From assembly GCF_003600895.1 (NCBI RefSeq), contig NZ_QYRP01000002.1:558001-622000 (forward strand): DNA of 64,000 bases, written 5' to 3'. The notes under the pieces were generated by a model that worked only from the letters and a program-made list of their open reading frames with translations, was not told the origin of the DNA and made no database searches. The position numbers and the translations under genes are program-made. Below, piece after piece: positions 1 through 46,300 of this stretch (the first letter of the stretch is position 1; each line of letters opens with the position of its first letter). Source of the DNA: Nocardioides cavernaquae (GTDB lineage: Bacteria > Actinomycetota > Actinomycetes > Propionibacteriales > Nocardioidaceae).

Positions 1-1
1 C

Positions 2-1345
2 CGCGCACTGAGCTCGCCCGACGTCCTGGCCGTCGAGTACGACCTGGTCGCGCAGATCCTCAACAGCGCCCAGCGCCAGAAGATCACCGTCGTCGAAGGC
101 GCCGCCGGCAGCGGCAAGACCCGTCGACTCGCGTCCACCCGCGACCAGGTCGAAGCACGCGGCGGCCGGATGCTCGTGGTGACGCCGACCCGCAAGGCGG
201 CGCAGGTGGCAGCGGGAGAGATCGGCACCGAGACCCGCGCTGTCGCCAAGCTGCTCCACGAGCACGGCTTCCGCTGGGACGACGAGGGACGCTGGAGCCG
301 GACCGAACCGTCGCCCACCGCTCCCCCGGTTGACCGCCGCACGCTCCTCGTCGTCGACGAGGCAGGCATGCTCGACCAGGACAGTGCCCGAGCCCTGCTG
401 GCCCTCGCCGACGCCGGCGGCGCCCAGGTGGTGCTGATCGGGGATCGGCACCAACTCCCGGCCGTCGGCCGAGGTGGCGTCATGGATCTCGCAGCGAGGT
501 ACGCCGCCGACCGTTGCATCGAGTACGACGGGGTCCACCGCTTCACCGATCCGGCGTACGCCGACCTCTCACTCCGGATGCGCTCAGGAGCGCGACCCGG
601 CGAGGTGTTCGACGAACTGATGCGCCGAGGCGACGTCGTGATCCACGCCAGCGACGTCGAACGCCTGGACGTCCTCGGCGTGAAGGCCGCGCGCGGCCAG
701 CTCGTCGTCGCCGACACCCGCGAACAGGTGACCCGCATCAACCACGTCACCCACCGAGTCCGGGTCATGACCGGACAGGCGGCAGAATCCGTCATCACCA
801 GGTCGGGCGAACTGATCGGCATCGGCGACACCATCGCCACCCGCCACAACGACGCCGAGGTCGGCGTCGCCAACCGGGAGCGGTGGACCGTCATCGGCTC
901 CTCAGCGGCCGGGCTGCACGTCAAGGGTGAGAACGGACAGCGCGTCCTGCCGCCGGCGTACGTCCGCGACCACGTCGAGCTCGCGTATGCGACCACTGCC
1001 TACGGTGCCCAAGGCTCTACCGTCCCTGTCAGCCACGTCCTCGTCGGCGACCACACCGGCGCCGCGTCTGCGTACGTCGGCATGACCCGCGGCCGCGAGC
1101 ACAACGTCGCCCATCTCATCGCCGAGTCCGTCGAGGAGGCCCGCACAGAGTGGATCGAGGTGTTCGGGCGTGACCGCGCTGACCTCGGTCCGTCGCATGC
1201 TTGCGGACTGGCTGTCGAGGCGATCGACCGCTATGGACCGATGCAGACTCGCTACGCCCGACGCACCTCGGCGCCCAGGCGCCCCGAGCCTGACGTCGCC
1301 TACCGCCCGCCGGCTTCGTCGTCGGCACCGCACCTCGGCCTCTGA
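2..1345 (+). CDS. Relaxase/helicase (TraA/MobF type), 3' portion
   Basis: The reading frame is open from the window edge, so the start lies upstream. The visible part is a superfamily-1 RecD/TraI-like helicase. It has a Walker A motif (GAAGSGKT, encoded near 98-121), a TPTRKAA segment after it, a Walker B-like VVDEAG, a GDRHQLPAVGRGG motif III, and a C-terminal YGAQGST...YVGMTRGR motif V/VI region. This architecture is typical of the C-terminal half of conjugative relaxases, which nick and unwind plasmid or ICE DNA for transfer. The relaxase domain itself would be upstream and is not visible. Together with the excisionase-like gene downstream it suggests an integrative conjugative element. 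A stand-alone RecD-like helicase is the alternative. Confidence 0.85.
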   Translation, partial: RALSSPDVLAVEYDLVAQILNSAQRQKITVVEGAAGSGKTRRLASTRDQVEARGGRMLVVTPTRKAAQVAAGEIGTETRAVAKLLHEHGFRWDDEGRWSRTEPSPTAPPVDRRTLLVVDEAGMLDQDSARALLALADAGGAQVVLIGDRHQLPAVGRGGVMDLAARYAADRCIEYDGVHRFTDPAYADLSLRMRSGARPGEVFDELMRRGDVVIHASDVERLDVLGVKAARGQLVVADTREQVTRINHVTHRVRVMTGQAAESVITRSGELIGIGDTIATRHNDAEVGVANRERWTVIGSSAAGLHVKGENGQRVLPPAYVRDHVELAYATTAYGAQGSTVPVSHVLVGDHTGAASAYVGMTRGREHNVAHLIAESVEEARTEWIEVFGRDRADLGPSHACGLAVEAIDRYGPMQTRYARRTSAPRRPEPDVAYRPPASSSAPHLGL

Positions 1346-1355
1346 TCTGGCTCGC

Positions 1356-2003
1356 CTACGGCGGCGGACGCGGGTCGAAGCGCGTGCGCCTCGGCGGAGG
1401 CGGCGGAGGTGGCGGCGGCAGCGGCTCGTAGCCGCGGATCCAGGCCCTCGACGTCAGCTCGGGGTCCTTCCCGAAGGACAGCGGGTTGGGCCTCAGCGGC
1501 TCCCTCGCCAACCGGATGGGCCACTTCCAGGCCTGGCGGACCGGATCCGGCAGGTCGAGCTCGTCCCACACATCGACGAGGAGGGCGCCATCCATCCAGC
1601 GGATCATCTGCTGCGGCAAGCCCCGGCGAATCAGCTGCTCGTAGGCGCCCTTGCGCTCTTCACGGTCGCTCATGTCCCAGTCCCGCATGCCGGTGTTGCG
1701 GATGAAGTCGGGGATGGCCAGCGTCGCGAAACAGTCGGGCGGCTCAACGCTCCACAGGATGTTCGGCGCCCAGAACCGGACGATTCCCGTCGGATGGTGC
1801 TCGACCCAGTCGATGTGCACCCGAAGGTTCAGGTCGTGACCGGTCGCCGCAATGATCCGCGCCGCGACCTTCAGCGATGGCGACTTCACACCGCGCTCGT
1901 ACGCCGACAGCGTCGCCTGCGACGTACCCGATCTGGCGGCGAGCTGGGCCTGCGTGAGGCCGCGCAGACGTCGCGCCCTTTCGATCAGATAGGCCCGATC
2001 CAT
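1356..2003 (-). CDS. XRE-family regulator with proline-rich tail
   Basis: Protein of 215 residues. Residues 1-60 form a Cro/C1-type helix-turn-helix (LTQAQLAARSGTSQATLSAYERG). Residues about 75-165 form a domain rich in Trp, Arg and Asp that I do not recognise by name. The C-terminus has an uninterrupted run of prolines followed by Arg/Pro. It converges on the relaxase gene with a 10-bp gap. A 10-bp perfect palindrome lies just upstream of the ATG and overlaps a TATGAT box placed 6 bases before the start. This suggests a leaderless, self-repressed transcript. The role is inferred to be control of the element or an antitoxin-like function; no partner toxin is obvious. Confidence 0.8.
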   Translation of the reverse strand: MDRAYLIERARRLRGLTQAQLAARSGTSQATLSAYERGVKSPSLKVAARIIAATGHDLNLRVHIDWVEHHPTGIVRFWAPNILWSVEPPDCFATLAIPDFIRNTGMRDWDMSDREERKGAYEQLIRRGLPQQMIRWMDGALLVDVWDELDLPDPVRQAWKWPIRLAREPLRPNPLSFGKDPELTSRAWIRGYEPLPPPPPPPPPRRTRFDPRPPP

Positions 2004-2015
2004 ACTGCCATCATA

Positions 2016-2025
2016 TCCGATCGGA
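2016..2025. promoter_or_regulatory. Palindromic operator candidate for the XRE gene
   Basis: The perfect palindrome TCCGATCGGA lies 13 bp upstream of the minus-strand ATG at 2003. On the minus strand it is followed directly by TATGAT, which ends 6 bases before the ATG, the spacing of a leaderless promoter. Repressor binding here would block the promoter. Assignment to the XRE protein is inferred from position. Confidence 0.5.
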
Positions 2026-2108
2026 CGTATTTCGCCCTTCCGTTGGCACAGCCCTCACACCTACCTGTTGCCCGCAGTCCTCGCGGGCCACACCAAACAG
2101 GAGGAACC

Positions 2109-2357
2109 ATGAACAGCAACACCAACGACGTCCCCTTCCACGAGCAGCACGATGACGAACTGCTCACCCTCGAGGACGTCGCCCAGATCCTGAAGGCGCC
2201 CACGAACACCGTCCGCTGGTGGCGCCAGGAGGGAACTGGCCCGGAGTTCTTCAAGATCGGCCGGCGGCTCTATACAACGGTCGGCGACCTCCGCACGTTC
2301 ATCCGCTCGCAGCGGCTCGCGTCCCGGCCGGTCCTCGATCGACCGAAGGCAGTGTGA
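2109..2357 (+). CDS. Excisionase-like MerR/AlpA helix-turn-helix protein
   Basis: Protein of 82 residues with the excisionase-family winged-helix pattern LLTLEDVAQILKAP...VRWWRQEG...FKIGRRLYTTVGDLRTFI (residues about 19-67). Such proteins bind and bend DNA at attachment or transfer sites and act as recombination directionality factors or small regulators. The open frame extends far upstream, but the ATG at 2109 is preceded by AGGAGG at good spacing and begins the domain, so it is chosen. It is followed by an overlapping small gene (GTGA junction), suggesting translational coupling. No integrase is visible, so an excisionase role rather than a transcriptional role is inference. Confidence 0.82.
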   Translation: MNSNTNDVPFHEQHDDELLTLEDVAQILKAPTNTVRWWRQEGTGPEFFKIGRRLYTTVGDLRTFIRSQRLASRPVLDRPKAV

Positions 2358-2647
2358 GCGCGATGGACGACGACCCGCGCCACGTCTTCCTCCACGCCAG
2401 CGATGTGATCCGTCGCTACGACTGGGGCAAGACGAAGGGCTATCAGAACCTCAAGGACCGCTCGCTCGTGCCGCCGCCGGTCATGACGCATCCCGACCGC
2501 TGGAGGCTCGACCAGCTCCTGACCTGGGAGGAACGTCGCATCGCCTTGGCGGAGGCGGCGCTGAAGGTTCTCGTTGCGCCTGAGCGGGAGCAGGTCGCCA
2601 TCGCGGACCTGCTCCCCAAGCCGAAGCGAAGTCCCCGATCCGCGTGA
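2354..2647 (+). CDS. Small protein coupled to the excisionase-like gene
   Basis: Protein of 97 residues if the GTG at 2354 is used (this overlaps the upstream stop as GTGA), or 94 residues from the ATG at 2363. GTG is preferred because GAAGGC lies at ribosome-binding distance while the ATG has none. The sequence DVIRRYDWGKTKGYQNLKD...PDRWRLDQLLTWEE resembles a short helix-turn-helix or AlpA-like DNA-binding fold, but I do not recognise a named family. The tail is basic. It is likely co-transcribed with the excisionase-like gene and probably serves the same element. Confidence 0.6.
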   Translation: MSAMDDDPRHVFLHASDVIRRYDWGKTKGYQNLKDRSLVPPPVMTHPDRWRLDQLLTWEERRIALAEAALKVLVAPEREQVAIADLLPKPKRSPRSA

Positions 2648-2698
2648 CGGCAGTCGACGGCGTCGTAGCGGGAGCCCCTTGCAAGTGCCTCCATGCGA

Positions 2699-4174
2699 CT
2701 AAAGGTCCAACCTACGAGCCCGGACCTCCGCGTGCAGGCTCACGTCATCCTGACACCTACATGATGGCCGCGGGTTCCGGTGCAGCGTCATGTCTGGGTG
2801 CGGGCCGAACAGTGCGTCGTACTGGACGTTGATCGATGGAATCGAGGTGCCGCGTCGAATGAGGGCGCCGACGACGAGGGCAGCGGCCTGCTGTGCAACA
2901 AACGCGGCGGATGGATTGAACCCACTGTCCCCGCCAACTAGGCCGAACGCCTTGCCAAGGCCGCAGATTTCCTTGCCGATCTGGCGCTCGAGGATGTCGC
3001 GGTTTTCCGACGTCAGGTTGTCGAGTGCGGCGATCTCCTCGGCGGCCAGCTTGTCGGTGCCGCGAGCGAGCCTCTCGGGGGAAAGTCCGGTGCGTTCGGC
3101 GAGGAGGTCGATGACGGACAGTCCCTGCGCCGGGCGCTGCGGGTAGTAACAACGCAGGCATGGGCCGTCCCAGGTCGCCTCGGAGAGGCTGAGCATTGTG
3201 CCGGTGTCGCCGCCGGTGCTGCCGTCGAGGGTATGAGTGGAGTGGATGGCAGCGATCTCGTGCCGGGCATCGATGCTGTCCACGGCACCGAGGACGGTGG
3301 TCGGCATCGTCTTTTCGCGGGCGTCGATCGCGTCGATGTAGTCCCGTGCGGTCCCGACAAACGGGTCGACACTGACGTTCACAAGTTCGTCGCGGATGAG
3401 GTGGACCTTGTGCGTTTTGGCCGCGGCGGTCTGGAGATCGCCGAGACTGTAGGTGGTGACGTTGGGCCTGTCGTACGTCTCGGGGTCTACGACGGTGAGA
3501 GCACCTTCGGCTTCGAGTTCGCGCAGGATGAGTGCGATGGCGGTGCCGATGGCGCCGCCGCCGATGAGCGCGGTGTCCTTCAGCGGCGGCAGGGGTCGGC
3601 TGACACTGTCCGGCTCGCCGAGAGTGACAGGGCAGAAGTCGAGCGGGACGAGCGGGCCACGCCGCTCCGGGAGCACGCCGACGACGAGCTTGAAGACCTC
3701 GGCGGTGAGCATCGCGCCGGCGAGGATCCCTCCCAAGCCGGTGCCCGGCTGCAGGAGGGGTGGGAACGCAACGCCTTTCGGGCGCAGCCGCGCTCCGTGT
3801 CCGTCCGCGACACCGCAGACTTGCGCTGAGGTTGAGCTCGTCCCGACATGTACGTGCACCGTGACTCGTTCGGGCCTGGACACCACAATCTGCCGGGCGC
3901 CATCGATGCTGGCCGCGAGCCGTTCGAGCTCGGCAACCAGGCCCGGGCCGAGCCGGTCCTCTCCGCCGCTGGGGTCGAGGTATAGCTGGACCGGCAGGCG
4001 CCGCAGGTTGGCGACCAGGACCCGAAGTGTGGTGGCCGCCATGGGTGCCGCTGGGTCCGCAGTGACAAGGACAGTGCTGTTCTCCAGCCGCACCTTCAGG
4101 TCGGCCTCGTCGGTGCCTGAACTGCCGGCTGCCACCCGGAGCGGGCGGCTGTAGTTGGTCTGGCCAGCGCTCAC
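2699..4174 (-). CDS. E1-like ThiF adenylyltransferase (BilD/Bub-type)
   Basis: Protein of 491 residues starting at GTG 4174, whose GTGA overlaps the stop of the peptidase gene. Residues about 200-340 form a ThiF/E1 Rossmann domain. It has a GGGAIG nucleotide loop (205-210), an acidic residue after strand 2 (VVD, D230), RPNV (236-239) and DSIDAR (299-304). The N-terminal about 190 residues, including GLGGILAGAMLTAEVFK (147-163), resemble the paired or inactive adenylation half seen in bacterial E1s. A zinc site is likely from C339/C342 (CLRC) and C472/C474 (CRC). C404 in KEICGLG is a candidate thioester cysteine. It would adenylate the Ubl encoded first in the operon and pass it to the E2. The family is clear; the partner assignment comes from the operon. 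Confidence 0.88.
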   Translation of the reverse strand: MSAGQTNYSRPLRVAAGSSGTDEADLKVRLENSTVLVTADPAAPMAATTLRVLVANLRRLPVQLYLDPSGGEDRLGPGLVAELERLAASIDGARQIVVSRPERVTVHVHVGTSSTSAQVCGVADGHGARLRPKGVAFPPLLQPGTGLGGILAGAMLTAEVFKLVVGVLPERRGPLVPLDFCPVTLGEPDSVSRPLPPLKDTALIGGGAIGTAIALILRELEAEGALTVVDPETYDRPNVTTYSLGDLQTAAAKTHKVHLIRDELVNVSVDPFVGTARDYIDAIDAREKTMPTTVLGAVDSIDARHEIAAIHSTHTLDGSTGGDTGTMLSLSEATWDGPCLRCYYPQRPAQGLSVIDLLAERTGLSPERLARGTDKLAAEEIAALDNLTSENRDILERQIGKEICGLGKAFGLVGGDSGFNPSAAFVAQQAAALVVGALIRRGTSIPSINVQYDALFGPHPDMTLHRNPRPSCRCQDDVSLHAEVRARRLDL

Positions 4175-4650
4175 CGGACACCGTCCGCGTCGAAGGTAAT
4201 GACCTTGGTGGTCTGGGTCGTCACGACGGCGGCGTCGATCGGTGTCCAGTCGTCGCCGTCGAAGGCCCACCAGCCCCAGACGGTCGGGTCGGCGGACGGG
4301 GTGCCAAAGTCCGGGATGACCGACGCGATGAAGCCGGGCATCCGGATGTTTCCGGTCTTGTCGGTGTGCGAAAGGAACGCGTCGTGCATGTGCGAGTGCA
4401 CCTGGGCGCGCAACTGGAGGCCAGTGTCCTCGGCGTATGAGAAGAGCGGGTTCAACGCGGCGGCGGAGAAGATGAGGAGCCCCGGGTGGCGCTCGATGCC
4501 GGCGACCCCGGCAAGGGCGACCACCGTAACCGTCGGTTCTCCGGGCGGGGTGAGGAGGAGCGAGCCGGTCTCGACGCCAAGGGCGCCGTACCGGGCGACG
4601 TCGGCGACCATGATGTCGACGGCGTCGGCTCCGATATGAAGTTGGGTCAT
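4171..4650 (-). CDS. JAMM/MPN peptidase (BilC-like Ubl processing or deconjugation)
   Basis: Protein of 159 residues with a prokaryotic JAB fold: E27 in VETGSLLL, then H85, H87, S94 and D97 in HSHMHDAFLSHTD. The canonical JAMM pattern is HxHx7SxxD; here only six residues separate H87 and S94, a one-residue shortening. The acidic and His ligands needed to hold zinc are present, so the enzyme is probably active. The start ATG overlaps the E2 stop (ATGA). In Bil/Bub-type operons the JAMM enzyme trims the Ubl precursor or removes conjugates. The Ubl here ends Gly-Ser, which would fit removal of one residue, but this is inference. Confidence 0.87.
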   Translation of the reverse strand: MTQLHIGADAVDIMVADVARYGALGVETGSLLLTPPGEPTVTVVALAGVAGIERHPGLLIFSAAALNPLFSYAEDTGLQLRAQVHSHMHDAFLSHTDKTGNIRMPGFIASVIPDFGTPSADPTVWGWWAFDGDDWTPIDAAVVTTQTTKVITFDADGVR

Positions 4651-5111
4651 GATGCGCGCGCCCCTCGTGCTCGATTGATGTCGTCTTGCACGTTCTGGAT
4701 GACGTACAAGAACGGATTGCCTTCCGAACGCCAGGCCTGGGCGCCGCTGGCCCACTCCGGGTGAAGGGCTTGGCCCTCTGCGGTGAACGGCTTGCAGATG
4801 TCGTTCGGCGCCCGGTACCCCGCCGCAGCGGGCCAGGCGGCGGCCACGTTGGCCAGGCCGCCGACCTCGGCCGCGAACAGAACCGACGGTGGAAGGTCCG
4901 GGTACACAGTCCAATGGATCCGCACGACAAACGGGCTGGTGCCAAGCTGGGCCGGCTGGATGACGGCCCAGTAGACGCCGGGCGGATCGACCAGTGCGGC
5001 CGGGCCATCGGGGTCTGCGACCCGGTGGATGAGGAGGCCGCCAGAGGCCTCGAGCGTGGCGCTCACGACGACGGCGTCACGCTCGAGGCGCAGCTGGCTC
5101 TCGTAGTCCAC
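4647..5111 (-). CDS. E2-like ubiquitin-conjugating-fold protein (BilB-like)
   Basis: Protein of 154 residues starting at GTG 5111, two bases after the Ubl stop. The order of elements matches a UBC fold: an N-terminal segment, strands around IHWTVYPDLPP (65-75), VLFAAEV, then APNDICKPFT with the candidate catalytic Cys106, and a helix after HPEW (117-120) carrying conserved Trp residues. No HPN tripeptide of eukaryotic E2s is seen, as is usual in bacterial E2 families. It would accept the Ubl from the E1 and transfer it to a target. No E3 is visible in the operon. Assignment rests on fold pattern plus order between Ubl, JAMM and E1 genes. Confidence 0.83.
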   Translation of the reverse strand: MDYESQLRLERDAVVVSATLEASGGLLIHRVADPDGPAALVDPPGVYWAVIQPAQLGTSPFVVRIHWTVYPDLPPSVLFAAEVGGLANVAAAWPAAAGYRAPNDICKPFTAEGQALHPEWASGAQAWRSEGNPFLYVIQNVQDDINRARGARAS

Positions 5112-5113
5112 GA

Positions 5114-5413
5114 TCAGCTCCCGGAGATCGTCTCGGTCCGCAGGGAGAGCTTGATTGAGCGGGCGTGGCCAGAGCCGTCCTGGGCGATCTCGCCGACGGT
5201 GACGTTCGGGTTCAGCTCGTCGCCGTCGGCGACGAAGAAGTACCGGGTGGCGCCGTCGGACCGGATGTCGAAGAACGTCAGCGCGGCAGCCAGGACCGTT
5301 GCGATCGAGCTGACCGAGCTGAACTTCTCGTTGAACTGCTTGGTGGCAGCGGCGAAGGACGCGTGGACTGCTACGTCGTCGTTGCCGCTGGGCTTCTCAG
5401 CCTTGGCATTCAT
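5114..5413 (-). CDS. Single-domain ubiquitin-like protein (BilA-like)
   Basis: Protein of 99 residues. The ATG at 5413 has GAGGAG at good spacing, which fixes the start. After about 14 polar residues the pattern fits a beta-grasp domain: VAVHASF / KQFNEKF / a helix ATVLAAALTFF / TRYFFVADGDEL / TVGEIA / IKLSLRTE. It ends in Ile-Ser-Gly-Ser, so removing the last Ser would expose a C-terminal Gly. It is the first gene of the operon Ubl-E2-JAMM-E1. Some described ISG15-like BilA proteins carry tandem beta-grasp domains; only one fits here. Function as a conjugated modifier is inferred from context and fold pattern. Confidence 0.82.
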   Translation of the reverse strand: MNAKAEKPSGNDDVAVHASFAAATKQFNEKFSSVSSIATVLAAALTFFDIRSDGATRYFFVADGDELNPNVTVGEIAQDGSGHARSIKLSLRTETISGS

Positions 5414-5421
5414 GGTGTCTC

Positions 5422-5454
5422 CTCGGTTCGTTCCAATGAGTTCGGTGAACCGAG
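5422..5454 (-). promoter_or_regulatory. Inverted repeat in the leader of the Ubl operon
   Basis: CTCGGTTC (5422-5429) and GAACCGAG (5447-5454) form an 8-bp inverted repeat with a 17-bp spacer, starting 8 bp upstream of the Ubl ATG. On the transcript the 3' arm runs into the GAGGAG ribosome-binding site. It could be an operator or an RNA hairpin that limits translation. The rest of the intergenic interval to 5567 holds a TGTACA palindrome at 5479-5484 and no strong sigma-70-type promoter that I can see. Confidence 0.4.
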
Positions 5455-5567
5455 AAGATCCCGTCTCACCTCTTTCACTGTACACAATGAAACCGTGGGC
5501 CGCCATAGTTTCGCCAAACCGGGCGTCGCTCCACCCTGCGCCCGCCCTCAGGCGCCACACTCCCGAA

Positions 5568-6461
5568 GTGGACCTAATCCTGGCCGGAGACATGCCCCTG
5601 GCCAGCGCTGCCTTCTTGAGCGGGCAGGACCCGGACCGACTGGTGATCGACGCAACGGCGCTCGCGTTCGCATGCCCGCTCGACCTAGCAGGCATCGTCG
5701 CCTGGGCCCACTGGGCTTCAAGCCACTCTCTGCCCGTAACCCTGAACCTCCCGCACGATCAGGCCACGGCCGCCTACCTGCAACGCATGGACGTACTCCG
5801 ACACTTGCCCTCCCGGTCCCGGATCGTCGGACGCCTCCCACCAGACACCCGCAATGATCAGACCGGGTCCCTGCTTGAGGTGACGGCGCTCAACCCGGGG
5901 AACGTCGACGACCTCTCGGAACGTCTCGGCCCCCTCGTGATGGGGTTCTACGGCGAGGACACCGAAGCCGGCGCCGCAGTCCTCCGCGCCTGCGGGGAAC
6001 TGATCAGCAACGCAGCCGAGCACGGGCCCAGCGAACGCGGTGCGTTCATGGCCGCACAACTTCACACAGGGACCACCACCGATGGCACTCGGCTGGAATT
6101 CGCGGTCTGTGACACCGGAATCGGCGTGATGAACCACCTTCGCCAGAACCCCAAGTACGCCCACTACACCCAGGACAAGTACGCGATCGCGAGAGCGACG
6201 AAGGCCGGAGTGACAGGAGTGACCGGCGGCCGTAATGACAAACGTGGCAACGGCCTCTGGGACGTCGTGACAGATGCCAGGAAGTTCGGCGAAGCGTCCC
6301 TCCAGATTCGATCAGGGAAGGGTGAAGTACGCGTCCACGGAACCCCGGACATGCTCAAACTGACCTCATCTGACCGTCCAGATCAGACAGCAGGAACCTG
6401 GGCGTGGCTCACCCATCGATTGAGTCCGGCGAGTAAGACTATGATTCAATCGAGAAAATGA
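5568..6461 (+). CDS. GHKL (histidine-kinase-like) ATP-binding protein
   Basis: Protein of 297 residues from GTG 5568. The C-terminal half is a GHKL ATPase: N box ELISNAAEHG (144-153), G1 box CDTGIG (181-186), and a GNGLWDVV G2-like segment (228-234). It lacks a phosphoacceptor H box and membrane segments. The N-terminal 130 residues, starting VDLILAG, look like a STAS-like or unknown alpha/beta domain. An ATG at 5487 in frame would add 27 residues; neither start has a clear ribosome-binding site. It is followed after 13 bp by a STAS-like gene, a pairing found in partner-switching or defence-linked modules. It is divergent from the Ubl operon and may share control with it. Confidence 0.8.
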   Translation: MDLILAGDMPLASAAFLSGQDPDRLVIDATALAFACPLDLAGIVAWAHWASSHSLPVTLNLPHDQATAAYLQRMDVLRHLPSRSRIVGRLPPDTRNDQTGSLLEVTALNPGNVDDLSERLGPLVMGFYGEDTEAGAAVLRACGELISNAAEHGPSERGAFMAAQLHTGTTTDGTRLEFAVCDTGIGVMNHLRQNPKYAHYTQDKYAIARATKAGVTGVTGGRNDKRGNGLWDVVTDARKFGEASLQIRSGKGEVRVHGTPDMLKLTSSDRPDQTAGTWAWLTHRLSPASKTMIQSRK

Positions 6462-6474
6462 AACCGGAGAAGCC

Positions 6475-7053
6475 ATGAAAGAAGCGACAACCTTTTCCGT
6501 TCGTCAGCTCGGCAAGTACCCAGCGACGCGGCCACTTGGACAGGAAGGCCGAGCAAGACTCGATGACCTTCTCGAAGGCCACTCGAACATCGACCTGACG
6601 ATCGACTTCTCGGGCGTCGAAGTAATGAACATTAGCTTCGCCGACGAGTTCCTCGGAAAGTTCCTGGCCTCACACGAGTTCTCGACCTCCGGCGCGACCG
6701 TGAGAGTCACCGGGCTGAACTCGGACAACCGATACTCAGTGCTTGTGTGCGTCGAGCGACGCAAGACCGCCATAGTCGTCGCTGAAGAGGACGGCACGCT
6801 CTCTTTGCTCGGCGACCCGATCCTTGAGGCGACTTTCGAGGTCGCCAAGGAACTACGCGAGTTCAAGGCAAGCGACATCGGCGCAAAACTCGACCTGACA
6901 TCACAGAACGCGAACAACCGACTCAAGCGGCTCGCTGACGCTGGCGCGTTGCACAAGGCGCAGGTAGTTGGCTCCTCCCGCGGCGGCAAGGAGTTCGCTT
7001 ATCAGGTTGCCGGCACGGTTGTCTCCGATGCGCGGAATCGAACTACCGCCTGA
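6475..7053 (+). CDS. STAS-like (DUF4325) protein with winged helix
   Basis: Protein of 192 residues with GGAGA five bases before the ATG. Residues about 1-100 match the STAS-like DUF4325 pattern (LDDLLEGHSNIDLTIDFSGV, then a FADEFLGKFL helix). Residues about 120-180 form a winged helix (FKASDIGAKLDLTSQNANNRLKRLADAGAL). Codon use is visibly richer in A/T-ending codons than the chromosomal genes to the right, a sign of transfer. With the GHKL ATPase immediately upstream it probably forms a regulatory pair: the ATPase modifies or binds the STAS-like domain and the winged helix binds DNA. Which genes it controls is unknown; the Ubl operon is the obvious candidate. Confidence 0.78.
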   Translation: MKEATTFSVRQLGKYPATRPLGQEGRARLDDLLEGHSNIDLTIDFSGVEVMNISFADEFLGKFLASHEFSTSGATVRVTGLNSDNRYSVLVCVERRKTAIVVAEEDGTLSLLGDPILEATFEVAKELREFKASDIGAKLDLTSQNANNRLKRLADAGALHKAQVVGSSRGGKEFAYQVAGTVVSDARNRTTA

Positions 7054-7132
7054 ATACTCGACACCTCCTGTTGGCGCGTGATGCCTTGCGGTGCGGCCCA
7101 CCCTGGACGAATCGATGCGACCGCTCGCTAGT

Positions 7133-7981
7133 TCAGCCCAAGGGGACACGGCCCCACCGGTCAAAGGTGCGGTCGATCTCCGCGGGGTCGACGAAGGTGT
7201 CGAACGCCGACTTGGCTCGCTCGGAACTCACCGGATCACGCAGGACGTCGCTCGTCCACTTGAGACTCTGGCGCACGTCGCTGCCCACCTCGGGGTGATC
7301 AACAAACTCCGACATCACTTGGGCTATCTCGGCAGGGTCAGCGACCGCCATGAGGCGCCACAGGTCACCCAAGTCCTTGTCTCTGACCGACCCCTTGCGC
7401 GGCTCTCGGAGCCGCTCACCGATCTTCGAGCCCTTGGCCAAGATAAGCGCGGGGATCTCGGCGACGTGGATCTCAGTCGCGAGCCGAGGATCGGCGAAGT
7501 CTGTGATCGTGACCAGAGACCGGTTGAACGCAGCGAGCTCGAGTCCGAGCACGTTTCCAACCGCGAGTTTGCCGTGGGCATGCTGCAACGCCGGAACGCC
7601 TCGCTTGCTCCGACTCGCCGTGCCGGAGAGTCCGTGCGGAGCAAGCAGGTCGATCTTCTCGCGGAACGACCGGGTCCCGTCGGGCTCGTCGTACGGCTTC
7701 CTGCCCCACAGGCCTGGCCGTGCCGTCGTGCGGTGCTCGTAGCCGGCGTCCGCCAGAAGGGCCTCGATGCTGGGAACGTCGCCGACCAAACCGGGGGTCA
7801 CTCCGAGGTCGCCGTCGCCGGTCGGCATACGCGGCACGTCGAGATCCATCGTCCTCAGCAGGACGGCGTGCGCACCGACCAAGGTCAATGACCGGGCATG
7901 GATCGCGAGAACGTCGACGACGTTGATGATCGCGCGGCGGCTCCACTCGATCTCGGTGCGCGGCTCCTTGAAGTCGGTCAA
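7133..7981 (-). CDS. AbiEii-type nucleotidyltransferase toxin
   Basis: Protein of 282 residues. LVGAHAVLLRT (34-44) and TGDGDLGV (54-61, metal ligands D56 and D58) match the nucleotidyltransferase core of AbiEii/MNT-type toxins. A later basic segment, ILAKGSKIGERL...DKDLGDLWRLM, matches the conserved C-terminal motif of the family. It overlaps the upstream gene by ATGA, so the pair is translationally coupled. In type IV toxin-antitoxin and abortive-infection systems this protein transfers nucleotides and causes growth arrest unless restrained by AbiEi. The function here is inferred from motifs and gene order. Confidence 0.8.
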   Translation of the reverse strand: MTDFKEPRTEIEWSRRAIINVVDVLAIHARSLTLVGAHAVLLRTMDLDVPRMPTGDGDLGVTPGLVGDVPSIEALLADAGYEHRTTARPGLWGRKPYDEPDGTRSFREKIDLLAPHGLSGTASRSKRGVPALQHAHGKLAVGNVLGLELAAFNRSLVTITDFADPRLATEIHVAEIPALILAKGSKIGERLREPRKGSVRDKDLGDLWRLMAVADPAEIAQVMSEFVDHPEVGSDVRQSLKWTSDVLRDPVSSERAKSAFDTFVDPAEIDRTFDRWGRVPLG

Positions 7982-8739
7982 GCCACTCGCCTCCCCATGA
8001 GGATGTCGGCCTGCTCGACCATGCGGTCGATGCCACCGTAGGCATCGATGATGACCTGGTCGCGAGCGACGACCGCGGTTCCGGCGATGTCGACACGGCC
8101 GACCTCGCTCACGCCGTCGAACGGGATCAGCGTTACCCGCATGCCGAACGAACCGGGCTCCTTGCGCGCCAGGCTTGCGGCTTCGGCGGCACGGGCGACG
8201 TCCTCGACGTAAAGAACCGGCCAGGCCTCCCCCGCGCTGGACCGGTATCGGTTGGCTCCGGCGTCACCGGTGAGTGCGTAGTCGATGCCTGCCCCGCGAA
8301 GCGAGTCAGCGACCTCATCCGCGGACAGCCCCGCGGTGAAGTCCACCGCTCCGGGGCGGCGCGTCAGTCGCGCGGCGCGACCGGCACGGAACAGCAGGTC
8401 CGCTTCCTTCGCGGCGGCGACCCGACCGTCGGCATCGAGAAGTCCGATGCGAACCCAGCGCTGGCGCCACAGTTCGACGCCCGGAGTCGACGCCACGTCG
8501 AGCTCCGGGTCGAGCGCAAGACGTGCGGTCGCGATCGCATCCACATCCGCGAGGCCGGTGAAGCCGATCGGCTCCCCCAGGACCGTCAGAATCTCTTGCG
8601 CAAGGTCGAACGACGGACTCACCGCACCTGACTCGATCCGCGTGACCGTGGTCGGGGCAACGTCGACCAGCGCCGCGAGCTGACGAGCGCTCAGCCCGTT
8701 CACGCGGCGCAGCGTCGAGATCCGCTCAGCCAGGTCCAT
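7978..8739 (-). CDS. XRE-type antitoxin/regulator (AbiEi-like)
   Basis: Protein of 253 residues. The N-terminal about 60 residues form a Cro/C1-type helix-turn-helix (LSARQLAALVDVAPTTVTRIESG). The remainder contains GIDYALTGDAGANRY (about 155-170) and a following segment resembling the AbiEi C-terminal domain. It is the first gene of the toxin pair and the stop overlaps the toxin start. Classical AbiEi carries a winged helix rather than an XRE helix-turn-helix, so this is a variant. A 7-4-7 inverted repeat lies at the promoter, consistent with autorepression. Confidence 0.75.
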   Translation of the reverse strand: MDLAERISTLRRVNGLSARQLAALVDVAPTTVTRIESGAVSPSFDLAQEILTVLGEPIGFTGLADVDAIATARLALDPELDVASTPGVELWRQRWVRIGLLDADGRVAAAKEADLLFRAGRAARLTRRPGAVDFTAGLSADEVADSLRGAGIDYALTGDAGANRYRSSAGEAWPVLYVEDVARAAEAASLARKEPGSFGMRVTLIPFDGVSEVGRVDIAGTAVVARDQVIIDAYGGIDRMVEQADILMGRRVA

Positions 8740-8776
8740 GTACGCCAGTCTAGGTTAATGTTGCAGATATGCAACA
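8740..8776 (-). promoter_or_regulatory. Leaderless-type promoter and operator of the AbiE-like pair
   Basis: The inverted repeat TGTTGCA-GATA-TGCAACA spans 8759-8776. On the minus strand, TTGCAT inside it can serve as -35, and TAGACT 16 bases on can serve as -10. TAGACT ends 7 bases before the ATG at 8739, so the transcript is predicted to start at or near the A of the ATG. Binding of the XRE protein would cover the -35 box. Confidence 0.6.
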
Positions 8777-8798
8777 CACGCCGTGTGGCTGCGCCCGG

Positions 8799-8850
8799 TT
8801 CTCGGAAACTGCGTATTCCGTCTCGCACGGAACTCGCCAATTTTCGAGAA
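8799..8850. repeat. Widely spaced imperfect inverted repeat
   Basis: TTCTCGGAAA (8799-8808) and TTTTCGAGAA (8841-8850) are inverted copies with one mismatch, separated by 32 bp, in the gap upstream of the gene at 8913. It could be a protein-binding site near the element end. Chance similarity cannot be excluded. Confidence 0.25.
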
Positions 8851-8912
8851 CTGCACCCACCCCGCATCCGCCCGCCGGTCATCGAAGGGCGGAGTCTCGA
8901 TAGCCTCGGACC

Positions 8913-9194
8913 GTGAGCACCAAGGCGGAGCGCCGGGCGGCCCGAGCGAACGTCGCCGCCTACCACGAAGAACAGCTCGGCCGACTGGTCGAACGTCTGA
9001 CCGACGCGATCGACCGGCACCGAGCCGCAGAGCTCGGCGCCTTCGATGTCGACGAGGCGGCCTTCCAGTACTCCCGCGCAGCCAAGGAGCTGTGGAAGTT
9101 CTGCAACCTGGGCAACGTCGAGATCGCCGCCCGCATCATTGCCGAAGATCCGCCGACGGACTGGTGGGACCGTGGAGCACCTCGACAGCGCTGA
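8913..9194 (+). CDS. Small hypothetical protein
   Basis: Protein of 93 residues from GTG 8913. The sequence is mostly helical and charged (KAERRAARANVAAYHEEQLGRLVERLTDAIDRHRAAELGAFDVDEAAFQYSRA, given in part) and ends with TDWWDRG. I do not recognise a family. No strong ribosome-binding site precedes the GTG. It lies at the right edge of the accessory region, divergent from the AbiE-like pair. Coding appears real from coherent GC-rich codon use, but support is limited to that. Confidence 0.5.
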   Translation: MSTKAERRAARANVAAYHEEQLGRLVERLTDAIDRHRAAELGAFDVDEAAFQYSRAAKELWKFCNLGNVEIAARIIAEDPPTDWWDRGAPRQR

Positions 9195-9315
9195 CGAGAC
9201 CCCCCCCCAGGCATCCGTCGATGGCGACCTGTCACGTCCGTCCCGAAATCGGTACGATTGCGACAGTTGAACACACACCGATCGGCTGCCGCTGGGTCAC
9301 CAGTGATGGGGCCGA

Positions 9316-9340
9316 AGTGATGCACGAGAGTGATGCACGA
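9316..9340. repeat. 12-bp tandem direct repeat near element end
   Basis: AGTGATGCACGA occurs at 9316-9327 and again at 9329-9340, one base apart, with a related CAGTGATGG just before. The repeats lie in a gene-free interval (9195-9442) next to the truncated DUF255 gene. Short direct repeats like this can be arm sites for integrase or excisionase; that role is inference. Confidence 0.35.
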
Positions 9341-9442: not shown

Positions 9443-9616
9443 TCAAGCCGCCTCGTGGCACCAGTGGCAGGCTGCGTAGCCCACCGACAGCAGCACCGGG
9501 ACGTTGCGGCGCCTTGCTTCCGCGAATGCCTCGGGCGACCACTCCCACCAGTCGACCGGGTTGTCGGCGTGCTGGAGGAGGTAGGGCGAGGTGGCGTCGG
9601 CGAGGCGGTTGGGCAT
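9443..9616 (-). pseudogene. 5' fragment of a DUF255 (YyaL-type) gene
   Basis: The 57-residue product begins [24 protein letters not shown] and continues to [10 protein letters not shown]. This is the highly conserved N-terminus of the DUF255 thioredoxin-domain family, whose members are usually well over 600 residues. The frame diverges immediately after CHWCH and stops within three codons. No continuation of the family sequence is seen on the minus strand to the left. The fragment lies at the junction between accessory and core DNA. The missing 3' part may lie beyond the left end of an inserted element, or may have been deleted. Confidence 0.7.
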
Positions 9617-46237: not shown

Positions 46238-46300
46238 GGCGTTCCAGATTCTCGGGTGAAAGGAAGTACAGGGTGGATCGGGGATGGATCAGGGATGAAG

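What the first reader, a model, noticed from the sequence alone, without database searches (positions are those of the whole stretch)
2699..5413. Complete four-gene bacterial ubiquitin-like conjugation operon in an integrated element
The operon encodes, in order, a Ubl, an E2 with candidate Cys106, a JAMM peptidase and an E1-like ThiF protein, with overlaps of 2-4 bp. This is the A-B-C-D order of Bil/Bub-type bacterial anti-phage systems, in which a ubiquitin-like protein is attached to targets such as phage structural proteins. It lies in an actinobacterial conjugative element beside an AbiE-type pair, which supports a defence role. The exact subtype is not decidable by eye.
Basis: partly seen in the sequence, partly recalled or inferred. 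Interest (0 to 1): 0.88.

Follow-up and report, generated by a model that had tools for sequence, protein, structure and literature searches.

The report
Actinobacterial Bil-like ubiquitin-tagging defence operon
An actinobacterium carries, on a mobile DNA element, a complete bacterial version of the ubiquitin tagging pathway, a diverged relative of the known anti-phage Bil system, next to two genes that look like a switch turning it on when DNA is damaged.

Summary
Window 5413-2699 (minus strand) encodes Ubl, E2, JAMM peptidase and E1, with a 2 bp gap and two 4 bp overlaps. All four genes occur in this order in 18 of 18 distinct loci examined. The E2 model is a UBC fold and the Ubl model a beta-grasp; both match Bil chains in the PDB. 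The E1 is homologous to BilD and the JAMM to BilC by profile; Cys404 falls on BilD Cys417. In the tree the actinobacterial E1s group apart from rhizobial Bil-type E1s, and standard models miss the E2. It is best called a diverged, Bil-type system: the E2 lacks the full CEHH motif of the studied BilB, so it is not filed as canonical Bil, and it is not Bub.

The divergent genes 5547-7053 resemble CapK+CapS, a published DNA-damage-responsive kinase and repressor pair; the phospho-serine is kept. A TTTCA-N10-TGAAA palindrome lies between capK and the operon in 4 of 4 such loci and in 0 of 14 others, which carry a CapH+CapP-type pair in the same place. The element probably spans about 31 kb (TrwC relaxase, ends in yyaL). 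Conjugation and anti-phage activity are inferred.

The parts
5114..5413 (-). Ubl (BilA-like), 99 aa; predicted conjugating terminus Gly98, one-residue tail (Ser99)
4647..5111 (-). E2 (BilB-like), 154 aa, GTG start; invariant Cys106, Glu112, His117, Trp120, Trp127
4171..4650 (-). JAMM isopeptidase (BilC-like), 159 aa; Glu27, His85, His87, Ser94, Asp97
   Evidence: PADLOC BilC 4.2e-10; PDB 8tyx BilC top hit E=0.0043; hhalign to five Bil-type JAMMs 98.2%, 5.6e-14; residues invariant in 16 of 16
2699..4174 (-). E1 (BilD-like), 491 aa, GTG start; candidate catalytic Cys404; CxxC (339/342) and CxC (472/474) likely zinc site
   Evidence: ThiF PF00899 2e-10; PDB 8tyz BilD 1.1e-9; hhalign to five Bil-type E1s 99.4%, 2.4e-21 over 445 columns; Cys404 in 33 of 33, same column as Cys417 of NGR234 BilD
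5472..5493 (.). Candidate operator 1, TTTCA-N10-TGAAA, between the Ubl gene and capK
   Evidence: In 4 of 4 CapKS loci, 0 of 14 CapHP loci; once in the whole genome in the extended form TTTCAN10TGAAAC
5547..6461 (+). CapK-like GHKL gene (about 300 aa; start codon not certain)
   Evidence: HATPase_c E=0.003, below Pfam cut-off; homologues 60-78% identical beside the operon in L003, L021, L028
6443..6464 (.). Candidate operator 2, TTCA-N10-TGAAA, at the capK/capS junction (overlaps capK 3' codons)
   Evidence: One-mismatch match; TTCA-N10-TGAA conserved in 4 of 4 loci
6475..7053 (+). CapS-like STAS-wHTH repressor gene, 192 aa; Ser54 aligns with the CapS phospho-serine
   Evidence: DUF4325 STAS-like 7e-8; PDB 9Z71 E. 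roggenkampii CapS E=4e-4 over residues 13-177
1..1345 (+). C-terminal part of the MobF/TrwC relaxase-helicase of the element (starts upstream of the window, about G000:C2:556811)
   Evidence: TrwC PF08751 2.4e-51 and AAA_30
9454..9611 (-). Probable right end of the element: partial copy of the yyaL/DUF255 5' end (158 bp, 80% identical to the intact gene at about G000:C2:536.1 kb)

Best explanation
This is a complete Bil-type ubiquitin-like conjugation operon of a diverged actinobacterial clade, carried on an integrated mobile element and kept silent by a CapS-like repressor until the CapK-like kinase senses DNA damage. Proposed course: phage infection or other damage yields ssDNA; CapK phosphorylates CapS on Ser54; CapS leaves the palindromes at 5472-5493 and 6443-6464; the Ubl-E2-JAMM-E1 operon is transcribed. 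The JAMM trims the Ser after Gly98 of the Ubl. The E1 adenylates Gly98 and takes it as a thioester on Cys404, then passes it to Cys106 of the E2. The E2 attaches it to amines on target proteins, by analogy with Bil probably phage structural proteins; the JAMM also removes it again. Shown here: gene content, order, folds, conserved active-site residues, regulator identity by sequence (CapS firmly, CapK weakly), and palindrome conservation. Inferred: every chemical and regulatory step, the target and the anti-phage outcome.
For: Order conserved in 18 of 18 distinct loci. E1 homologous to BilD with Cys404 in the column of Cys417, the catalytic Cys named in a review passage. JAMM homologous to BilC. 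E2 UBC fold, highest query TM-score to the Bil E2 chain; C106/E112 align with BilB C138/E144 in the profile comparison. Ubl beta-grasp; Gly98 invariant in 42 of 42, followed by 0-2 residues. Active-site residues of E2, E1 and JAMM invariant. Tree: 17 actinobacterial E1s in one group at 100/99. CapS homologous to solved CapS with the phospho-serine kept. CapS found in exactly the same 3 of 149 family genomes as the E2. 14 relatives carry an HTH + peptidase pair in the same divergent place. Palindrome only in CapKS loci. Patchy distribution, 1 of 396 in the phylum sample and 3 of 149 in the family sample. Of 10 flanking proteins picked by eye from six relatives, 6 hit PADLOC models at E<=1e-5, among them R-M genes.
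Against: No experiment. The Ubl cannot be linked to BilA by profile comparison (hhalign 1%, E=0.055) and the E2 only weakly to BilB (48.9%); PADLOC BilB is hit by 1 of 34 members at E=0.011, and Foldseek E-values for the E2 model are weak (none <=0.001). The E2 lacks the full CEHH spacing of BilB. The CapK assignment rests on a sub-threshold GHKL match and gene position, and CapK had no useful PDB match. capKS here is divergent from the operon, not followed by it as reported. Site 2 overlaps coding sequence, so its conservation is partly explained by the protein. The published CapS half-site is TTAA, not TTTCA. Of the 10 flanking proteins, 4 had no hit and one hit was a TnsB transposition model.
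Confidence: 0.75

Rival explanations
1. A Ubl conjugation pathway of the same chemistry that serves a general DNA-damage or stress response of the host or element (for example tagging host or element proteins) rather than anti-phage defence.
For: CapK/CapS respond to DNA damage in the studied case. The EMBO J 2026 authors say that Bub operons with the same regulators have not been shown to protect against phage and may be stress pathways. I found no phage data for this clade.
Against: The closest characterised relative by E1 and JAMM is Bil, which attaches Ubl to the phage central tail fibre (review passage). Patchy distribution, mobile carriage and some R-M neighbours fit defence better.
Confidence: 0.2
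2. A sulfur-carrier or cofactor pathway of the ThiS/MoaD-ThiF/MoeB kind.
For: The E1 carries a ThiF domain and gives weak hits to ThiF and MoeB models, far below their NCBIfam cut-offs.
Against: A UBC-fold E2 with invariant Cys, an E1 that aligns with BilD over both halves, and an E1 Cys in the BilD Cys417 column all point to conjugation. No sulfur-metabolism genes were noticed beside the loci (by eye, not searched).
Confidence: 0.03
3. A decayed cargo remnant without function.
For: It lies on an integrated element; one relative (L006) has an E1 frame that stops after 382 codons.
Against: All four frames of the window are intact; dN/dS 0.20-0.47 for the operon and 0.11-0.27 for capK/capS.
Confidence: 0.02

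Closest known systems
BilABCD (type represented by PDB 8tyx-8tz0 and the Sinorhizobium/Rhizobium plasmid loci L023, L024)
   Same: Gene order Ubl-E2-JAMM-E1; two-lobed E1 with the Cys in the Cys417 column; JAMM HxHx6SxxD; UBC-fold E2 with Cys and Glu at +6; Ubl with a Gly at or near its end
   Different: Separate E1 group; E2 has an invariant His at +11 and no conserved His at +8; Ubl not recognisably similar to BilA by profile comparison; actinobacterial hosts; E2 of the window not recognised by Pfam, NCBIfam or PADLOC
Bub (bacterial ubiquitination-like; PDB 9ea4, 9ea5, 9eav BubCD)
   Same: Bacterial Ubl conjugation, often with CapKS, CapHP or CapW regulators
   Different: E1 profile hits BubCD only at E about 0.9 against 1e-9 for BilD
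CapK+CapS regulators (EMBO J 2026, PMC13373217)
   Same: GHKL-type gene directly followed by a STAS-wHTH gene; CapS homologous over most of its length, Ser54 kept; two palindromes, one at the immune operon (10-bp spacing, as published) and one at capK/capS
   Different: Divergent from the operon; half-site TTTCA or TTCA instead of TTAA; junction site also has 10-bp spacing, whereas the published junction site has 1 bp. Five Bil operons with capKS are already counted in that paper; whether this clade is among them could not be seen
CapH+CapP regulators
   Same: In 14 relatives an HTH + M78/CapP-type peptidase pair sits divergently at the operon's 5' side
   Different: Not present at the window's own locus, where a CapKS-like pair stands instead

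Membership tests
Bil (BilABCD) | Four genes in order Ubl, E2, JAMM, E1 | tested here: met
   18 of 18 distinct loci; same order in NGR234 and BT04
Bil (BilABCD) | BilD-type E1: inactive N-terminal and active C-terminal adenylation halves, catalytic Cys417 | tested here: met
   hhalign 99.4% over 445 columns; Cys404 in the column of Cys417 of NGR234 BilD, Cys in 21 of 22 tree rows, Natrinema excepted. Sequence level only
Bil (BilABCD) | BilC-type JAMM peptidase with catalytic residues | tested here: met
   PADLOC 4.2e-10, PDB 8tyx top hit, residues 16 of 16
Bil (BilABCD) | BilB-type E2: UBC fold with catalytic Cys | tested here: met
Bil (BilABCD) | Full CEHH motif described for the studied BilB (Cys138, Glu144, His146, His151) | tested here: not met
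   Cys and Glu +6 invariant; +8 is Gln in 78 and His in 8 of 100; His at +11 invariant. The Natrinema relative also departs from the motif
Bil (BilABCD) | Ubl of beta-grasp fold ending in a reactive Gly after processing | tested here: met
   Fold; Gly98 in 42 of 42. Processing itself not tested
Bil (BilABCD) | BilA sequence family | tested here: inconclusive
   PADLOC BilA 0.0022; hhalign against three BilA-type proteins not significant
Bil (BilABCD) | Conjugation to phage proteins and protection | not testable with these tools
   needs experiment
Bub | E1 closest to Bub E1 (BubCD) | tested here: not met
   BilD 1.1e-9 against BubCD 0.88
CapK+CapS | capK directly followed by capS | tested here: met
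   window and 3 further loci
CapK+CapS | CapS: STAS + wHTH with phosphorylated Ser | tested here: met
   the Ser assignment assumes a 2-residue offset between the PDB chain and protein numbering
CapK+CapS | CapK: HTH-STAS-GHKL | tested here: inconclusive
   GHKL match E=0.003 below cut-off; HTH and STAS parts not detected
CapK+CapS | Followed by the immune operon | tested here: not met
   Adjacent to the operon's 5' end but divergent
CapK+CapS | ssDNA-activated kinase, CapS-regulated promoter | not testable with these tools
   needs experiment
Integrative mobile element | Integrase, relaxase and repeated ends | tested here: inconclusive
   TrwC relaxase and a 158-bp yyaL duplication at 80% identity are there; the integrase-like ORF beside yyaL scores below Pfam cut-offs and the genome-wide integrase search listed none inside the element

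The most novel reading that the evidence does not exclude
The actinobacterial clade is a third lineage of bacterial ubiquitination, apart from canonical Bil and Bub, in which the regulatory module is exchangeable: the pair at the same divergent position changed once between CapH+CapP type and CapK+CapS type, together with the operator. In part of the clade the Ubl gene ends exactly at the conjugating Gly, yet the JAMM keeps its whole active site, so removal of the tag, not maturation, is what selection holds on to. It runs in a cell that also encodes Pup.
Probability: 0.45. Interest if true: 0.68.

Novelty: new variant of a known kind. Interest (0 to 1): 0.55.

Why it matters
It extends eukaryote-like E1-E2-JAMM tagging to a clade found in Nocardioides, Janibacter, Streptomyces, Micromonospora, Lentzea, Actinomadura and others, where the E2 escapes Pfam, NCBIfam and (nearly) PADLOC and is called 'hypothetical protein' wherever a listed source names it. 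One conjugation operon is found beside two unrelated regulator pairs whose studied homologues both respond to DNA damage, which makes the question whether Bil-type defence is damage-induced directly testable in ordinary laboratory actinobacteria. The tailless Ubls offer a natural separation of the JAMM's maturation and deconjugation roles.

Tried and rejected
Ubl as a fosfomycin-resistance protein: NCBIfam FosA model at 19.9 bits against a cut-off of 275; rejected in view of fold and context. Membership in Bub: rejected. AbiE pair: no AbiE model hit at E<=1; left open, as the first gene has a nucleotidyltransferase-like look by eye only. E2 against PDB by sequence: no hit at E<=10. E2 relatives against Pfam: six scattered models, best E 0.027, taken as chance. 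Ubl against BilA by hhalign: not significant. CapK against PDB: one hit at E=0.27, not useful. Foldseek E-values for the E2 model are weak (best 0.025, none <=0.001), although the leading rows are nearly all E2-containing entries. Serine recombinase: PF07508 found nowhere in the genome at E<=0.001 (other serine-recombinase models not tried). Tyrosine-integrase search of the genome (PF00589) listed 8 places, none inside the element; the integrase-like ORF was found by reading L040. Chains 8tz0_C/8tyz_C and 8tyx_A/8tyz_B are taken as the Bil E2 and Ubl from entry titles and lengths, not from a chain label. Papers: the primary Bil and Bub papers (Chambers 2024, Hor 2024, Gong 2025, Ye 2026) are not held; statements about them come from passages of reviews and of the EMBO J paper. 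Of PMC13373217 I read parts 1-2 of 12 of the main text and passages; of PMC11354881, PMC1779556 and PMC12948488 passages only; other papers only as search listings. Searches for this clade or for Bil in actinobacteria showed no title or abstract start that describes it; most subscription papers are not held and supplementary data could not be read, so the five Bil+CapKS operons counted in the EMBO J paper could include relatives of this one.
Full report
Observation. The minus strand from 5413 to 2699 holds four intact, tightly packed genes: Ubl (99 aa), E2 (154 aa), JAMM (159 aa) and E1 (491 aa). Ubl and E2 are 2 bp apart; the other two junctions are 4-bp ATGA/GTGA overlaps. The E1 frame is open upstream to 5008, but homologues begin near the GTG at 4174.

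Active sites. E2 Cys106, Glu112, His117, Trp120 and Trp127 are invariant in 100 of 100 rows. E1 Cys404, Cys342, Cys472 and Cys474 are invariant in 33 of 33 and Cys339 in 32 of 33. JAMM Glu27, His85, His87, Ser94 and Asp97 are invariant in 16 of 16. Ubl Gly98 is invariant in 42 of 42. E1 Cys404 stands in the column of Cys417 of NGR234 BilD; a review names Cys417 as the BilD residue that forms the thioester, and Cys138, Glu144, His146 and His151 for BilB (passages). In our E2, Cys and Glu +6 agree, but +8 is not a conserved His and a His at +11 is invariant. Iyer et al. 2006 (passages) already described bacterial E2s without the classical His and with an invariant His after the Cys.

The Ubl tail. 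After Gly98 come one or two residues in 34 of 42 rows and none in 8 of 42; the 8 are all CapHP-type loci. In the 7 tailless loci that are in the JAMM alignment the JAMM keeps its full motif. So the peptidase is kept where no maturation is needed, which argues that deconjugation is the selected activity. This is inference.

Distribution. The E2 search listed 120 of 168 hits and the E1 search 120 of 182; those that bear an organism name are Actinomycetota. A scan of genome contigs gave 15 loci, all with the four genes in order, one (L006) with an E1 frame of only 382 codons. In whole genomes the E2 occurs in 1 of 396 sampled across the phylum (the window's own) and 3 of 149 in the family. One of 72,556 plasmid records holds a match to the E1 at E<=1e-5 (Janibacter melonis). 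G499, of the window's genus, has its match at the same contig coordinate (187650) as the Nocardioides silvaticus locus L003, so the genus is most likely Nocardioides. The E1 tree of 22 rows puts the 17 actinobacterial E1s in one group at 100/99, apart from four rhizobial rows; a Natrinema plasmid E1 sits on a long branch and its place is unsure.

The switch. The plus-strand genes 5547-6461 and 6475-7053 are a GHKL-like gene and a STAS-wHTH gene. The second matches E. roggenkampii CapS (9Z71) over residues 13-177 at E=4e-4 and V. cholerae CapS (9Z72) at 0.0038. The EMBO J 2026 paper (parts 1-2 of 12 and passages) shows that CapS represses an adjacent immune operon and is phosphorylated by CapK on a conserved Ser when DNA is damaged; among 443 capK loci it counts 231 Bub and 5 Bil operons. 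Our Ser54 aligns with that Ser if the PDB chains carry two extra N-terminal residues, as the V. cholerae S58A chain suggests. CapS and E2 occur in exactly the same 3 of 149 family genomes.

In 4 loci (window, L003, L021, L028) the pair at the divergent 5' side of the operon is CapKS-like. In the other 14 (L004-L017) it is an HTH gene plus a second gene of peptidase type. Four of these 14 pairs (L006, L009, L011, L017) were run against Pfam: four of four HTH proteins matched HTH models, three of four partners matched Peptidase_M78 and L017's did not. The four partners all matched PADLOC capP, at 2.8e-6 to 9.1e-11, though RmrA models score nearly as well for L011; of three HTH proteins run, two gave weak capH hits (1.3e-4 and 0.0068). 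The other ten pairs are assigned by homology to L011 or L006. On the E1 tree the four CapKS loci form one group (100/99), so one change is enough; its direction is not tested.

The operators. The gap between Ubl and capK (133 bp if capK starts at 5547) holds TTTCACTGTACACAATGAAAC. TTTCA-N10-TGAAA is present in all four CapKS loci and in none of the 14 CapHP loci; of 29 loci then held, 21 had no match and the 8 with a match are these four and their duplicates. The extended form occurs once in the genome. A second site, TTCA-N10-TGAA, lies at the capK/capS junction in 4 of 4. In the window, GTTTCA-N10-TGAAA with one mismatch gives five matches against 0.03 expected: both sites read on both strands, and one elsewhere at 46241. 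The published CapS sites lie at the operon and at the capK/capS junction, with a 10-bp spacing at the operon, but have TTAA half-sites and a 1-bp spacing at the junction. Site 2 overlaps the last capK codons, so part of its conservation is coding.

The element. A TrwC relaxase (2.4e-51) runs from about G000:C2:556811 to window 1345. A copy of 158 bp from the 5' end of yyaL/DUF255 at window 9454-9611 is 80% identical to the intact gene at about G000:C2:536.1 kb, and a further 25-bp match (96%) lies just inside, at window 9316-9340. An integrase-like ORF with sub-threshold Pfam scores starts about 0.1 kb from the intact copy. The element therefore probably spans about 31 kb and ends at window ~9450. 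GC is 66.7% in 1-9300 against 69.9% in 9700-64000.

Verdict. A Bil-type Ubl conjugation operon, diverged, most likely a DNA-damage-induced anti-phage system; a new variant of a known kind. My odds, by judgement: Ubl conjugation about 0.93, anti-phage function about 0.78.

Noticed in passing
window 9316-9340 and 9454-9611; G000:C2 about 536.1-536.4 kb (L040:6114-6345): Partial duplication of the yyaL/DUF255 5' end at 80% identity plus a 25-bp repeat, with an integrase-like ORF beside the intact copy: the element may integrate in yyaL near its CxxC codons and bring a replacement 5' end.
   Followed up: partly
L022:2825-16458 (G000:C2 about 542.8-556.5 kb): Cargo upstream of the relaxase looks by eye like amino-acid (proline/hydroxyproline-type) catabolism with an ABC transporter, an MFS transporter and a MarR regulator; only the MarR gene was checked by profile.
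   Followed up: no
L026:2294-5056 (Natrinema zhouii plasmid): A haloarchaeal plasmid has two short unnamed genes, a JAMM and a ThiF gene in what looks like the Bil order; its E1 has a gap at the column of the catalytic Cys.
   Followed up: partly
L025:1084-2025 and L027:1-1347: Bradyrhizobium plasmid Bil-like operons carry a divergent WYL-domain gene (CapW-like) and ImmA/IrrE + HTH genes (CapHP-like) respectively, so different regulators stand beside such operons outside Actinomycetota too.
   Followed up: partly
G000:C2:2887773-2887964: The same genome encodes Pup (PF05639, 8.7e-24), so two unrelated protein-tagging systems may coexist in this cell.
   Followed up: no
window 7133-8739 (-): Two overlapping genes, one without a family match of note and one with an N-terminal HTH; possible toxin-antitoxin pair, not recognised as AbiE by the models searched.
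   Followed up: partly
L007:11648-17086; L013:7184-7945; L016:4263-12684: R-M-like genes (type I methylase and nuclease; type II methylase; type IIG-like nuclease) and a GajB-like helicase piece lie within a few kb of relatives' operons.
   Followed up: partly
L006:10919-12065: In Sphaerisporangium perillae the E1 frame of the operon stops after 382 codons, so this copy may be inactive or misassembled.
   Followed up: partly
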